Positions 1 to 3,600 of a stretch of 64,000 nucleotides of DNA are shown here, in pieces. The translations under genes were made by a program, and so were the position numbers. Numbering within the stretch: position 1 is the stretch's first letter; each line of letters begins with the position of its first letter. This stretch comes from Coprinus comatus (Eukaryota > Basidiomycota > Agaricomycetes > Agaricales > Agaricaceae): NCBI GenBank assembly GCA_034638255.1, contig JAWPGT010000020.1:1-64000 (forward strand). The letters run 5' to 3'. The notes beneath the pieces were generated by a model, which ran no database searches, was not told the DNA's origin, and was given only the letters and a program-made list of their open reading frames with translations.

Positions 1-94
1 CTAACCCCCTAACCCCCTAACCCCCCTAACCCCCTAACCCCCTAACCCCCTAACCCCCTAACCCCCCTAACCCCCTAACCCCCTAACCCCCCTA
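1..94. repeat. Telomere repeat tract, C-rich strand
   Basis: The first 94 bases are an unbroken array of CCCCCTAA units with two CCCCCCTAA variants, about eleven units in all. The G-rich strand would read TTAGGGGG toward the left end, so the chromosome end lies to the left. The canonical fungal unit is TTAGGG; five-G units are reported for Cryptococcus. The tract ends at an incomplete unit that passes directly into reverse transcriptase coding sequence with no spacer. Confidence 0.97.
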
Positions 95-1545
95 GTCTTA
101 TCCCTAGTTTTTATGTGATCCCAAAGATTCATAAAACGCCGGCATCAGCAAGGCCGATCCTGCCCTGCCACTCTGTGATTCAAGGACCTGTGGGCAAGTA
201 TGTCTCTAAGATGCTACAACCTATCGTTAAAAGTGCTTCTACCGTGATAACGGGCACTAAAGATATGGTTATGAAGCTCAAACAGATTTCTCTTCCGTCT
301 GCTAAGTTCGATAGCAGTAAAGGACTGAAACGGTTATATTTCATCTCTGGCGACGTCGTTGCCTTCTACCCAAATATAAATATTGATAAAGCACATGAGT
401 ACGCTTATAACGCTTTAGAGGAATATTTGGCGTATGATGAATCTATAGATGTAACCGATGAAGCACAAGTTCGCAAAGCAGCTGATACTTTGCTACTTTT
501 TAGGGAGTGCTTGACAGTCACGGATAGTAATCTTCTTCTCAAATTCGACGGGAAATATTATAGACAGAATCGTGGTCTGGCAATGGGTATGGCATCCTCA
601 CCAGATCTTGCTAACATCTATGGTTGGCAACAAGAACGAGACAGTCCAATATTATCACACCCCGATGTACCTTATTACGGAAGGTATATAGATGATTGTT
701 TTGGCGTATGCTACGCAAGTAGTGCACAAGAAGTCTTAGAACTTTTCCAAAATAATATTAACTTCTACGGATGCGAGATTAAGTGGTCAGTATCGGACAG
801 TCATATGACGTTTCTTGACTTGACACTGTTCATTGAGAACGGCAGGGTTGAATGGAAACCCTACAGGAAACCACTGAACCACTTTGAACGAATCCCATGG
901 ATCAGCTCTCACCCAGAATATGTCAAACGCGGCACATTCTTAAGTGAACTGAGTCGGATAGCCACACTTAGCTCTCGTATTGGTGATTACGCAGAGGCAT
1001 GTAGAGAAGTCGCGGATATTTACATTGCGCGTGGTTATCCCCCTAGATTGATATCAACATGGATAAGACAAAACTACCAAGTACGTTGGGATGCGCGGTA
1101 TAATGAGAATACTGCTCCTTTGGCACCAGTACTTGTCCTCAAGTCTGAATACAATCTATCCTGGGATTATTTTAACGTTCAAACATTAGCAGAACGGATG
1201 AAGGCCGGATGGCGAGTAGCAATGCGCACAATCGCCTTCAGTGATAAGGAGCTATTAGCAGAGCTTCCTCCTGAAATCGCTGCAACCAAACCTGACTTAT
1301 CTCTTCTTCGTGGTCCCCTTAGAAATAAGGCCCACCCAGAAGCTCATTCGTCTTCGATGAGTGATGCCCGTGTATACGGGAGTCTGTTACGTCTGGATAA
1401 GCTTGGTCTTCTTGATAGGCGAGTACTTATTAGTAAACGTCGTACAACACAACTAATCGATCTTGTTTCGATTTGGAGAAAATCCGTTCTCGAGCGTCGT
1501 GACCGCCAAGTGCAATCAACACTTGACGACTGGGTTGTTCGTTGA
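94..1545 (+). CDS. Penelope-like reverse transcriptase, 5'-truncated, no endonuclease domain
   Basis: The frame is open right up to the telomere junction; the first in-frame start-like codon (GTG, 115) is internal, so the true start is lost. Counting from 115, the sequence begins in the conserved PKIHK motif, then shows FISGDVVAFYPNI with the first catalytic Asp near residue 80, the RGLAMGMASSPDLANIYG motif B near 153-170, and the catalytic YIDD at 191-194, followed by a thumb region ending near 476. There is no C-terminal GIY-YIG nuclease. The N-terminal extension and first RT blocks are missing, so the protein is unlikely to act alone, although the catalytic palm is intact and has no internal stop. 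Likely role in intact relatives: copying element RNA onto chromosome ends. Confidence 0.9.
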   Translation, partial: SLIPSFYVIPKIHKTPASARPILPCHSVIQGPVGKYVSKMLQPIVKSASTVITGTKDMVMKLKQISLPSAKFDSSKGLKRLYFISGDVVAFYPNINIDKAHEYAYNALEEYLAYDESIDVTDEAQVRKAADTLLLFRECLTVTDSNLLLKFDGKYYRQNRGLAMGMASSPDLANIYGWQQERDSPILSHPDVPYYGRYIDDCFGVCYASSAQEVLELFQNNINFYGCEIKWSVSDSHMTFLDLTLFIENGRVEWKPYRKPLNHFERIPWISSHPEYVKRGTFLSELSRIATLSSRIGDYAEACREVADIYIARGYPPRLISTWIRQNYQVRWDARYNENTAPLAPVLVLKSEYNLSWDYFNVQTLAERMKAGWRVAMRTIAFSDKELLAELPPEIAATKPDLSLLRGPLRNKAHPEAHSSSMSDARVYGSLLRLDKLGLLDRRVLISKRRTTQLIDLVSIWRKSVLERRDRQVQSTLDDWVVR

Positions 1546-1992
1546 GGCCCTGAGCCTTTGATGAAACTCTTAGTACGGCGGGATGCTTTCCATCCACAGG
1601 TTATGTCTATGCCCCCGGATTAAACACTTGCCAGGGAATAAAAAAAGTGTAATACCATATTTGAGCATGGGTAGCAATATGATATGGTAGGCATGGACTT
1701 TATAACTGGCGTCGTGTACGTCAGTCCGGTAATCAGCCCATTGATTACTGGGAGACCTGGGAATTCATCTCAATGGAACAGACGGACGTCTTAGGTGACG
1801 GACCACCTCTTCGGAACTTAACTGCTGAATTTAGTAAGCAGCCTATCTATAGTCGTGAAAAATAGTCAGCTAATGAATCCTTGAAAGTGCATGCCCATTT
1901 ATGATCTCTTACTGAGGGCATAATCCAGCTAGGAACTTTTGCGGTACGTACTTACAATACACGTGTGTCTCAGGCATACTAACCGTATGTCT
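1546..1992. other. 3' untranslated region of the telomeric retroelement
   Basis: About 450 bases between the RT stop codon and the telomere-like patch at 1993. No ORF of note. It contains short inverted repeats such as TACCATAT/ATATGGTA near 1653-1688 that could form RNA stems. I read it as the element 3' UTR. Confidence 0.55.
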
Positions 1993-2004
1993 CCCCCTAA
2001 CCCC
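1993..2004. repeat. Interstitial telomere-like patch
   Basis: CCCCCTAACCCC occurs in the same orientation as the chromosome end, followed by a decayed CGAACCC. It sits at the 3' boundary of the retroelement. It is what would remain if the element had attached to an older telomere end. Confidence 0.7.
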
Positions 2005-2497
2005 GAACCCAAACCGGTAACTGTGTGGTGCATTTACCGGCGGGCCGGGGGAGGTCACCTGACAGGTCCCATCACGTGACTAACTTTCTATTTATAACAG
2101 CTTATGTCATGTAATGTTTCCCACGGTTGACCGTGGTTTTGGCTTAGGTAATATATTGTATATAATATAAGTATTAGTCATCCTTTTATTATTTATTTTG
2201 TAGTCAGATTCCATCTCCGACCAATATTTCAAACTCCCCTTAAATTAGTTATAAATAGTACTGAGTATTAATTAGGTGTAGATTATGTAAGTAGTTCACA
2301 CGTTCCTAGATTTGGTTGTCTCAGACAACGTCCTTTGGTATAATAAATCAATACCATTGGCTGGATTAGGTAAGATGATTGATAACCAAAGGTGCCTGAT
2401 GAGCCTTATAAAGGCGAAACAGGGAGTTGCAGAGGTTTCCTCTGCACTTGTTGCACCCTCGGTTCGCTTCGCTCACCTCGGTTGCAAGTTAGGTTTT
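2005..2497 (+). mobile_element. Second retroelement remnant or distal part of the same element, carrying a ribozyme
   Basis: This 490-base stretch lies between two telomere-like patches and contains a hammerhead ribozyme. It also holds a perfect hairpin at 2121-2136 (CCACGG/CCGTGG). It has no convincing ORF. Either it is the 3' end of an older, heavily 5'-truncated element of the same family, or it is part of one element whose 3' end is at 2498. No RT motif is present, so this is inferred from the boundaries and the ribozyme. Confidence 0.5.
2384..2464 (+). ncRNA. Hammerhead ribozyme
   Basis: All core elements are present in order: CTGATGA (2396-2402), helix II GCCTT/AAGGC (2403-2407 with 2411-2415), then GAAAC (2416-2420). 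Helix III closes A2419-U2451 and C2420-G2450 and includes a perfect inner hairpin GCAGAGG/CCTCTGC (2429-2435 with 2439-2445). The cleavage triplet is GTT (2450-2452), so cleavage is predicted after 2452. Helix I pairs GGTGC (2391-2395) with GCACC (2453-2457), then a symmetric 3x3 internal loop, then AACC (2384-2387) with GGTT (2461-2464). Internal loops in helix I commonly make the tertiary contact in natural hammerheads. Hammerhead motifs are known in Penelope-like elements. Activity is predicted from structure only. Confidence 0.88.
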
Positions 2498-2510
2498 CCT
2501 AACCCCTAAA
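2498..2510. repeat. Second interstitial telomere-like patch
   Basis: CCTAACCCCTAAA, in the same orientation as the telomere and shortly downstream of the ribozyme. The match is short and degenerate (four-C unit), so it could be chance, but it sits where a 3' element boundary would be expected. Confidence 0.5.
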
Positions 2511-2589
2511 GCATTCTCAGGGGGTACATTATTCTTGTTTTTGTAACATCAGAACCAAAAATAGACTGCTTTTATATCTTGTCATATTT

Positions 2590-3025
2590 CTTAACGTTTT
2601 GTCTGTATTCCCTGGCCAATTTCATGTTTCCCTCTATCTTTTGTAATCTATATGAGTAATTTATCTACATTACTAGAACTATTCCGTGTACTATTGATTG
2701 AATTTAGTTGTTTGTCCTTTATTTCCTAACGAGTTTCATATTTTCTTTGTAATTTATAATAGATGGCAGTATGGACTCTGTGTTTCCTAATGATTTATAT
2801 GTGTTACTTGAATAATATACTGTGTTTTCTAATGAATTATAGTGTTTCCTAATGAGTTGTGTGTGTTACTTGACTAATACACTGTGTTTCCTAATAGTTC
2901 AAGTATTATCTGTGTGTTTCCTAGTGATTTATGTGTGTTACTTGAATAATATACTGTGTTTCCTGACAATATACTGTGTTTCCTGACAATATACTGTGTT
3001 TCCTGACAATATACTGTGTTTCTTA
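2590..3025 (+). repeat. Subtelomeric minisatellite built on TGTGTTTCCT
   Basis: The motif TGTGTTTCCT or close variants recurs many times, spaced irregularly by roughly 20-45 bases, often followed by AATGA. The last part, about 2943-3025, is a clean tandem of a 20-base unit (ATACTGTGTTTCCTGACAAT, about four copies). The region is AT-rich and non-coding. Confidence 0.8.
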
Positions 3026-3180
3026 CTAGACTGATAAAAAAAAGAGAAATTCCACAGGAAACACAGTCATGGGAAAAAAATGGTAGAGGAAATGAGGTCG
3101 TGAGAAAAAATCAGTCACAGGAAACACTGATGTATTGCCTAAAATGGTAACCAAGAAACACTGATGTGTTTCTTGGAACA
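3026..3180 (-). repeat. Inverted copies of the subtelomeric motif, with a perfect hairpin
   Basis: The same motif continues here in the opposite orientation (AGGAAACAC at about 3056 and 3118). It ends in a 26-base palindrome at 3151-3176: arms CCAAGAAACAC and GTGTTTCTTGG around TGAT. The array therefore reverses direction near 3030. Confidence 0.65.
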
Positions 3181-3600
3181 GATAGTTAGGTCGAGTGACT
3201 TCACATGCGACATTTGTGAATTCCTTAATCACGTCGTCCCAGGTACGAAAGATGTTCAGGGTCTGAGTGAGGAGTCGATCAAAGGTATCATAAGGAGTGT
3301 ATAATAGTCGGTGAGAAGTGAAAATGCGGAGGAGTTGATCATTAAAGTCGCGAGATATGGCTTCTAGGAGAAGGGCACGTTCCGTAGGGCATAGCGAGAG
3401 CTTGAATTTGTGACTGAAATGGGCGAATAAAAGAATGACAGACTCATGGATTTTCTCAAGGTTGGTAGCGGAGAGGAGTTCGTTGAGGGAAGAAGAGAGT
3501 TGAATGTAGAATCAAGATATTCTGAGGGAAACTGCTTGAGTGAACTCACCCTTTTACCAACGAGAGGCCAATTGAAGATTCGACCGAGATACATATCCCC
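3120..3600 (-). pseudogene. Frameshifted coding remnant, unrecognised
   Basis: On the minus strand two frames look protein-like in sequence but do not join in one frame. A first part starts MYLGRIFNWPLVGKR near 3594. A second, in another frame, runs from about 3490 to 3120 with composition typical of a helical protein (for example LLLEAISRDFNDQLLRI and TPYDTFDRLLTQTLNIFRTW). No GT-AG intron with matching phase is obvious between them, and the frame closes in the repeat array. I do not recognise the family. A real gene with an unusual intron is the alternative. Confidence 0.35.

What the first reader, a model, noticed from the sequence alone, without database searches (positions are those of the whole stretch)
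2384..2464. Complete hammerhead ribozyme in the subtelomere
All conserved core residues, three helices, a GTT cleavage triplet and a symmetric internal loop in helix I fit together over 81 bases. Its place beside an RT remnant and two telomere-like patches ties it to the retroelement. It could process element RNA and set its 5' end at base 2453.
Basis: partly seen in the sequence, partly recalled or inferred. Interest (0 to 1): 0.85.

Follow-up and report, generated by a model that had tools for sequence, protein, structure and literature searches.

The report
Hammerhead ribozyme ending a telomere retroelement
A fungal mobile element that adds itself to chromosome ends carries what looks like a self-cutting RNA motif next to the tail that grips the telomere, and this copy has lost an intron, so it was made from a spliced RNA.

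Summary
The motif is there. At 2384-2464 every hammerhead core base, a GUU triplet and three helices (5+4, 5, and 5+8 bp) fit together. None of 5,057 shuffles of the window gave 5/5/5-bp helices. Rfam misses it.

It is not beside an RT remnant: RT (115-1545) and ribozyme belong to one endonuclease-less Penelope-like telomeric element. C29 and C49 carry both, colinear. The ribozyme ends 33 nt before the last invariant bases, CC, after which come telomere-like bases; it is identical at 8 of 11 genomic places found. All 12 copies found lie near contig ends, and six are capped by telomere arrays at 2-5 nt microhomologies.

Main new fact: five copies carry a 59-nt spliceosomal-type intron between RT and ribozyme; the window copy lacks exactly it. 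It therefore came from a spliced sense RNA, continuous across the cleavage site.

No held copy begins at 2453 or ends at 2452, so 'sets its 5' end at 2453' is unsupported. Cleavage is untested and nearest-neighbour folding disfavours the fold. Closest known: rotifer Terminons, whose ribozymes are called minimal; here helix III is long.

The parts
1..91 (.). Terminal telomere array, C-rich strand on + (CCCCCTAA/CCCCCCTAA)n, capping the 5'-truncated element
   Evidence: Sequence; such arrays end 15 contigs by pattern, plus C37 with a shorter array
115..1545 (+). RT ORF of the element (5'-truncated; open from about base 91; IPKIHK, DVVAFYPN, GLAMG and YIDD motifs)
   Evidence: Pfam RVT_1 E 4.7e-5, 23.6 bits, under its cut-off of 29.6; 55% identity over 98% to two Leucoagaricus proteins; best solved folds are telomerase RTs, but with low TM-scores; 6 of 6 coding differences from C29 are silent
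1993..2010 (+). Internal telomere-like patch CCCCCTAACCCCGAACCC; not an end of the element
   Evidence: Passed through in C49, C29 and C66; the telomere cap of C47a is joined in it
2092..2093 (+). Exon-exon junction: five other copies have a 59-nt GTAAGT...CTAAT...ACAG intron exactly here
2384..2395 (+). Helix I, 5' strand (AACC, AAA loop, GGTGC)
2396..2402 (+). Catalytic core CTGATGA
2403..2415 (+). Helix II GCCTT-ATA-AAGGC
2416..2418 (+). Core GAA (A15.1 is 2419; numbering recalled)
2419..2451 (+). Helix III: 5 bp, GAGT bulge, 8 bp, TTT loop (longer than described for PLE/Terminon hammerheads)
   Evidence: literature statement in PMC7761336
2450..2452 (+). GTT cleavage triplet; predicted cut after 2452
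   Evidence: cleavage inferred, not tested
2453..2464 (+). Helix I, 3' strand (GCACC, CTC loop, GGTT)
2488..2503 (+). 3'-terminal hairpin GTTAGG-TTTT-CCTAAC; last bases shared by all 8 intact-ribozyme copies are CC 2498-2499
2500..2509 (+). Telomere-like residue TAACCCCTAA at the 3' junction; 8-20 nt in the 8 copies
2510..3191 (+). Subtelomeric flank outside the element; 90% identical to C49:9188-9821, which has no element copy joined there

Best explanation
Bases from about 91 to 2499 are a 5'-truncated copy of an endonuclease-less Penelope-like element of a mushroom-type fungus, and 2384-2464 is the type I hammerhead ribozyme in its 3' end. Shown: all 12 copies found lie near contig ends; at every telomere-bearing end the 3' end faces inward; the last invariant bases are GGTTTTCC, followed by telomere-like bases; six 5' ends are capped by telomere arrays; the window copy lacks exactly a spliceosomal-type intron. 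Inferred: a sense RNA is made and sometimes spliced. Its CCUAACCCC tail pairs with the G-rich overhang of an eroded or broken chromosome end. The telomerase-like RT extends that end; synthesis stops early, and telomerase caps the truncated cDNA at a short match. The hammerhead most likely serves as the 3'-end fold that the RT recognises and that presents the tail. Its self-cleavage is conditional and off the productive path, because templates that became copies were uncut at 2452|2453.
For: Colinear copies with RT plus ribozyme, C29 and C49. Eight identical ribozymes with different flanks at the junction. 0 of 81 ribozyme columns vary among 8 copies against 13 of 291 upstream, Fisher p 0.039. 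Two internal copies each carry a core change (C47b at G8, C55 at G12) and a third (C73) has lost the core. Intron absence at exact splice borders: only 1 of 2,416 59-mers of the C49 copy passes a strict intron descriptor, and it is the missing one; 5 of 146,705 windows of 40-100 nt pass. 5' caps at CTA, CTAA, TAA, AACCC, CC and CCC (my reading of the junctions printed), where chance gives 3 nt or more at about 9% of positions. The RT model's six best solved matches are telomerases. Published work describes EN-deficient PLEs that prime at chromosome ends and become telomere-capped (PMC3846280, passages), and Terminons with the ribozyme just before reverse-complement telomere repeats (PMC6431247, section 8).
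Against: No cleavage or RNA data. Under nearest-neighbour energies the hammerhead fold is only about 0.3% of the 81-mer ensemble and about 1e-5 of 2384-2509 (tertiary contacts are not modelled). Rfam misses it. No covariation can be counted because the copies are near-identical. The conservation test is weak: p 0.039, the copies share ancestry, and it leaves out the four decayed or partial copies (C47b, C55, C73, C37). Decay is not a clean sign of internal copies: C28, C117 and C49 are also internal (about 2.6-13 kb) and intact. The terminal hairpin sequesters CCUAAC in the model, which argues against a freely exposed tail. The telomerase matches have TM-scores of 0.31-0.43 by query length, and other RTs follow closely. 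The intron loss is a single case; recombination with an unseen processed copy gives the same DNA but still needs a spliced template somewhere.
Confidence: 0.78

Rival explanations
1. The hammerhead is a processing ribozyme: it cuts read-through transcripts of stacked copies at 2452|2453 and so defines the 5' end of the next unit's RNA.
For: Core, triplet and helices are intact in 8 copies; one stacked pair exists, C47a and C47b, with 105 bases between the two ribozymes. 5'-end processing is the usual proposal for other retrotransposon ribozymes (PMC7761336, passages).
Against: None of 12 copies begins at 2453 and none of the 11 that reach the ribozyme ends at 2452. A cut removes the telomere-matching tail. 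In an animal PLE, ribozyme mutants still inserted, unprocessed RNA was called the dominant substrate, and no reads began or ended at the site (PMC11167929, section 3).
Confidence: 0.15
2. A hammerhead look-alike: the core is chance or relic, conserved only because the copies are young.
For: Rfam scores far below threshold; weak thermodynamic support; the copies are 97-99.5% identical in most aligned pieces, so identity of an 81-base stretch is not surprising.
Against: 0 of 5,057 shuffled windows give 5/5/5 helices; the placement (3' end, before telomere repeats) matches a published arrangement; the 79-mer folds well, z -3.0, 1 of 200 shuffles as low (the minimum-energy fold is not the hammerhead).
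Confidence: 0.1
3. The window's missing 59 bp is an ordinary deletion and says nothing about the template.
For: Only one copy lacks it; subtelomeres recombine and delete often.
Against: The missing piece runs exactly from GTAAGT to ACAG with a CTAAT branch-like site; 1 of 2,416 same-length windows looks so, though 12 pass a bare GT-AG test. The splice borders are intact in all 5 intron-bearing copies.
Confidence: 0.05
4. The 3' module with the ribozyme is a separate non-autonomous retrozyme joined by chance to the RT piece.
For: A telomere-like patch at 1993-2010 separates them; C28, C37, C117, C55 and C74 carry only parts downstream of it.
Against: In C20, C29, C49 and C66 the sequence runs uninterrupted through the patch, and the 3'-only copies start at different points, as 5' truncation predicts. 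No array of short ribozyme units was seen in the fetched stretches; the closest is the C47 pair.
Confidence: 0.06

Closest known systems
Terminons / Athena, EN-deficient telomeric PLEs of bdelloid rotifers (PMC6431247 section 8; PMC3846280 passages)
   Same: Hammerhead just upstream of reverse-complement telomere repeats at the 3' end; copies at chromosome ends, 5'-truncated and telomere-capped; no endonuclease domain seen in the part held
   Different: Fungal host with TTAGGGGG-type repeats; helix III long and paired where PLE/Terminon hammerheads are called minimal, lacking helix III or the loop-loop contacts (PMC7761336); the tail is partly inside a hairpin; no giant multi-ORF copy held
EN-deficient fungal PLEs (the name Coprina is recalled; PMC3846280 says fungi hold only EN-deficient PLEs, passages; Agaricus telomere-linked PLEs, PMC7473861 passages)
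   Same: Host group by RT relatives (Leucoagaricus, Agaricus, Armillaria, Coprinellus), telomere link
   Different: No hammerhead is mentioned for fungal PLEs in the passages seen (0 occurrences of the word in PMC7473861); the two papers most likely to mention one are not held
PAc (Poseidon) PLE of Anolis (PMC11167929, section 3)
   Same: PLE with a hammerhead; uncut RNA is the dominant insertion template in vitro
   Different: Has a GIY-YIG endonuclease, pLTR tandems and a ribozyme overlapping the ORF start; [quoted passage not shown] targets AT-rich DNA
Retrozymes (PMC7229834 and PMC7761336 passages)
   Same: Type I hammerhead in a retroelement
   Different: Retrozymes are short non-autonomous tandem repeats making RNA circles; here one ribozyme sits in an RT-coding element

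Membership tests
Hammerhead ribozyme (type I) | Core CUGANGA ... GAA(A) and NUH triplet in the right places | tested here: met
Hammerhead ribozyme (type I) | Three helices around the core, helix I open | tested here: met
   The 27 pairs can form; descriptor 5/5/5. That they do form is not shown: the predicted minimum-energy fold differs
Hammerhead ribozyme (type I) | Helices supported by covariation among relatives | tested here: inconclusive
   Only near-identical copies of one genome held; genome contigs and viral contigs gave no relatives
Hammerhead ribozyme (type I) | Loop I - loop II tertiary contacts | not testable with these tools
   An AAA/CUC internal loop in helix I and an AUA (or UUAUAAA) loop in helix II are present
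Hammerhead ribozyme (type I) | Self-cleavage after NUH | not testable with these tools
   Needs bench work
Rfam Hammerhead_1 / Hammerhead_3 as models | Score at or above gathering | tested here: not met
   No hit in the window; 14.8 bits against 48.5; no genome hit over cut-off, 68 and 73 candidates scored
EN-deficient telomeric Penelope-like element | RT of the telomerase-like kind | tested here: inconclusive
   14 of the 50 structures listed are telomerases, including ranks 1-6, but TM-scores are at most 0.43, group II and retron RTs follow closely, and mean pLDDT is 68.4; Pfam RVT_1 only below its cut-off
EN-deficient telomeric Penelope-like element | RT falls in the PLE clade of a tree | not tested
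   No tree was built; no reference PLE set was held
EN-deficient telomeric Penelope-like element | No GIY-YIG endonuclease | tested here: met
   None at E 1 in the window ORF or the C49 upstream ORF; the full 5' end is not held
EN-deficient telomeric Penelope-like element | At chromosome ends, 3' end inward, 5' end truncated by telomere repeats | tested here: met
   6 of 12 copies found are capped (C20, C29, C66, C47a, C74, C37); all 12 lie within 14 kb of a contig end; C73 is oriented the other way in a rearranged end
Terminon | Hammerhead next to 3' reverse-complement telomere repeats | tested here: met
   8 of 8 intact-ribozyme copies are followed by telomere-like bases, 8-20 nt
Terminon | Minimal hammerhead (no helix III or no loop-loop contacts) | tested here: not met
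   Helix III of 5+8 bp can form; loop contacts not testable
Terminon | Giant size with accessory ORFs | not tested
   No full-length copy held; the longest (C49) is about 3.8 kb and appears 5'-truncated too
Retrozyme | Short tandem units without RT | tested here: not met
   RT in the same element

The most novel reading that the evidence does not exclude
This fungal telomeric element carries a full-length hammerhead with a stable helix III, able to act as a monomer, that works as a 3'-end recognition fold and switch. Reverse transcription onto the chromosome end uses uncut, sense, sometimes spliced RNA, and cleavage separates body from telomere-gripping tail only when the RNA must not be used, for example in read-through or surplus RNA. 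The intron-less window copy would be natural evidence that a sense RNA templates Penelope-like transposition at telomeres; for Penelope elements, published work left open whether the template is antisense or unspliced sense.
Probability: 0.3. Interest if true: 0.72.

Novelty: new variant of a known kind. Interest (0 to 1): 0.5.

Why it matters
Penelope-like elements share ancestry with telomerase, and how they copy themselves is still argued. A 2013 paper on the endonuclease-bearing kind (PMC3846280, passages) left open whether the template is antisense or unspliced sense RNA, because introns are retained. Here one telomeric family holds intron-bearing and exactly intron-less copies side by side, which points to a spliced sense RNA as template at least once, and to an RNA that was continuous over the ribozyme's cut site. 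It also offers a hammerhead with a closed helix III in a telomeric PLE, one that can be tested as a single molecule.

Tried and rejected
Downstream switch: the bases after the ribozyme can pair with the cleavage strand and lower the hammerhead share, but 59 of 500 shuffled tails (2465-2509; 205 of 500 for 2465-2490) and 19 of 300 tails taken elsewhere in the window do as much, so I dropped it.

Genome-wide hunt for other hammerheads: Rfam families gave nothing over cut-off, though only 68 and 73 candidates were scored; two weak Hammerhead_1 matches at 16.9-19.6 bits lie elsewhere and were not followed. The home-made model R1 over 19 held sources found this family, plus its own opposite-strand echo at about 14 bits. 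The core pattern is too loose: 222 hits against 136 control hits.

Relatives elsewhere: an RT alignment of the window and 12 of the 91 protein hits found nothing in genome contigs or viral contigs; the proteins (91 of 7,999 scored candidates, a capped set) come without DNA I could reach. A first ribozyme alignment with wrong offsets was replaced. R1 rests on three distinct sequences and matches them by construction.

Considered and rejected: minus-strand hammerhead; retrozyme; chance deletion of the intron. The host species was not pursued. PDB search by sequence gave nothing useful (best E 0.41); NCBIfam gave only weak RT matches.

Full report
WHAT IS THERE. The window starts at a chromosome end: a C-rich telomere array occupies bases 1-91. 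It lies in contig C20 of a 35.7-Mb, 134-contig genome. RT relatives named by their sources are from Leucoagaricus, Agaricus, Armillaria, Coprinellus and Tulasnella, plus two from the nematode Haemonchus; most of the 91 are unnamed. The host is most likely a mushroom-type basidiomycete (inference).

MORE THAN CHANCE. A descriptor with core, triplet and the three helices finds this one site in the window and none on the other strand. Over 5,057 dinucleotide shuffles it finds 41 sites at 4/3/3 bp or better, 1 at 5/5/3 and 0 at 5/5/5. The 79-nt stretch folds better than 199 of 200 shuffles, z -3.0, though its minimum-energy fold is not the hammerhead. Against this, Rfam reports nothing at gathering, 14.8 bits for Hammerhead_3, and no hit over cut-off in the whole genome for either model (68 and 73 candidates scored). 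The 33-nt helix III arm may explain the miss by a 45-position model; I could not test that. Nearest-neighbour energies put the hammerhead 2.2 kcal/mol above the best alternative and at about 0.3% of the 81-mer ensemble, or about 1e-5 in the full 3' end. These energies leave out tertiary contacts.

ONE ELEMENT, NOT NEIGHBOURS. A DNA search with 1990-2560 gives 18 matches on 11 contigs, the window's own C20 included; one of these, on C49, is flank only. Fetched stretches show C49 matching 92-2092 and 2093-2506, and C29 matching 206-2092 and 2093-2509, colinear, at 99.3-99.5%. RT, internal telomere-like patch (1993-2010) and ribozyme are thus one unit. A 19-base piece of the ribozyme occurs at 11 places with up to 2 mismatches: 8 have an identical 81-mer, C47b and C55 each carry a core change (G8 and G12; C47b also one in helix I), and C73 has lost the core. 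A twelfth copy, C37, lacks the ribozyme part. RT sequence was found only in C20, C29 and C49. All 12 copies lie within 14 kb of a contig end; by my arithmetic such stretches make up about a tenth of the assembly. Telomere arrays were found at 15 contig ends by pattern, plus C37; 9 of these 16 contigs carry a copy, and for C8, C21, C31, C34, C39, C95 and C103 the search reported none (its counts are lower bounds). C117 and C73 carry a copy near a contig end without a held array.

ENDS. In the 8 intact copies the 3' end is GGTTTTCC followed by 8-20 telomere-like bases and then a flank that differs in each. Flanks of 1,200 bases share pieces of 24-559 bases between some copies, at different offsets, as subtelomeric repeats do. 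In 7 of 8 the base after CC is T; in C49 it is A. Terminal arrays of 9 held telomere-bearing ends are 24-114 nt (assembly ends may be cut short), so the buried residues are shorter, which fits attachment to eroded or broken ends (inference). The window flank 2510-3191 matches C49:9188-9821 at 90%, where no element copy is joined and more sequence lies outward; this too fits a broken end that was healed. The 5' ends of C20, C29, C66, C47a, C74 and C37 are joined to the array at CTA, CTAA, TAA, AACCC, CC and CCC shared with the C49 copy (my reading); 3 nt or more is expected at about 9% of positions. That is what capping of a truncated cDNA by telomerase would leave (inference).

INTRON. Five of six copies that cover the site (C49, C29, C66, C47a, C28) have 59 extra bases, GTAAGT...TAACTAAT...ATACAG, between what are window bases 2092 and 2093; the window copy lacks exactly these. 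Of 2,416 59-mers in the C49 copy only this one passes a strict intron descriptor; 12 pass a bare GT-AG; of all 146,705 windows of 40-100 nt, 5 pass the strict one. So the window copy most likely descends from spliced, hence sense, RNA. That RNA was continuous from the RT region across 2452|2453 to the telomere tail, unless the ribozyme religated. The other five came from RNA that was not spliced at this site.

SELECTION. Window against C29: 10 differences in 1,887 bases, 6 in the ORF and all 6 silent. Window against C49: the same 6, 3 non-coding and one frameshifting base in C49. C29 and C49 share the silent changes, so this is one contrast of six changes. The RT was probably under constraint until recently. 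In the 3' region 0 of 81 ribozyme columns vary among 8 copies, against 13 of 291 upstream (6-8 copies) and 1 of 33 after; Fisher p 0.039 for the first two. Left out of that count: C47b, C55, C73, C37. The three decayed ribozymes are in internal or rearranged copies, but C28, C117 and C49 are internal and intact.

HOW IT WORKS. I favour this order. Sense RNA is made, sometimes spliced. The RT binds the 3' fold, that is hammerhead plus terminal hairpin. CCUAACCCC pairs with the G-rich overhang; the RT extends the chromosome; the cDNA ends early; telomerase caps it. Published work gives the same scheme for EN-deficient PLEs (PMC3846280, passages) and for Terminons, with the hammerhead before the telomere repeats (PMC6431247, section 8). 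In an animal PLE the ribozyme needed protein to cut, cleavage was not needed for insertion in vitro, and uncut RNA was called the dominant template (PMC11167929, section 3). The held copies agree: none of 12 begins at 2453, none of the 11 that reach the ribozyme ends at 2452. I therefore place cleavage off the productive path: disposal or read-through control is likely, but not shown.

AGAINST MY READING. The terminal hairpin GTTAGG-TTTT-CCTAAC holds most of the tail in pairs in the model, unlike the exposed tail described for Terminons. A switch by downstream pairing was tested and is not beyond chance. The RT assignment rests on relatives and on fold matches from a model of mean pLDDT 68.4: 14 of 50 listed structures are telomerases, ranks 1-6 among them, but TM-scores are at most 0.43 and other RTs follow closely. 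No tree was built, and Pfam RVT_1 scores under its cut-off. One intron-less copy is one event.

NOVELTY. Hammerheads in PLEs and at Terminon 3' ends are known. Those are called minimal, lacking helix III or the tertiary contacts (PMC7761336, passages); this one has a long helix III. Searches of the held library for hammerhead or Penelope with fungi, Coprina, basidiomycete or mushroom terms (listings only, 20 of 42 shown) listed no paper whose title or abstract start speaks of a fungal PLE hammerhead. One paper reports five Rfam type-3 hammerhead hits in Pleurotus and does not link them to PLEs in the passages seen (PMC5040776). The two key papers (Cervera and De la Pena 2014; Arkhipova et al. 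2017) are not held, so prior mention is possible. I rate it a new variant of a known kind.

Going back over the calls I corrected the telomerase count (14, not 13), the stacked-ribozyme gap (105, not 106), the spacer (33 nt to CC), the identity range, and added C73 to the list of 5' ends; the RT membership row was lowered to inconclusive.

Noticed in passing
window 2474-2483: A second copy of the helix I 3' strand (CACCTCGGTT, against CACCCTCGGTT at 2454-2464) starts 20 bases downstream; it could pair with the helix I 5' strand as a decoy.
   Followed up: partly
window 2488-2503: The element's last hairpin has a telomere-like G-strand arm (GTTAGG) facing a C-strand arm (CCTAAC) across TTTT; it could take part in priming or fold-back.
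   Followed up: partly
window 1993-2010: Internal telomere-like patch; in C47a the telomere cap is joined right in it, so it may be a preferred truncation or recombination point.
   Followed up: partly
window 2780-3022: Degenerate tandem repeats (20- and 62-base units, GTGTTTCCTAATGA...) shared with subtelomeres of C49 and C73.
   Followed up: partly
L053 (C49) 74-2047, minus strand: DEAD/Helicase_C gene reaching the telomere array, like the telomere-linked helicases of fungi (that name recalled; Pfam).
   Followed up: partly
L059 (C117) after 5597; L058 (C28) outward of its copy: A GTATAGCTGCGACATA-type satellite follows one element copy and precedes another, a subtelomeric mosaic.
   Followed up: no
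L057 (C47) 3210-3476: Two ribozyme copies stacked with 105 bases between them, the outer intact and the inner with a core change: probably successive additions to one end.
   Followed up: partly
L064 (C73) 1-431: An eroded element 3' end in the other orientation next to the subtelomeric repeat: a rearranged end.
   Followed up: no
L066 (C1) and L067 (C2): Two weak Hammerhead_1 matches (19.6 and 16.9 bits, under the 34-bit cut-off) far inside or away from this family's copies.
   Followed up: no
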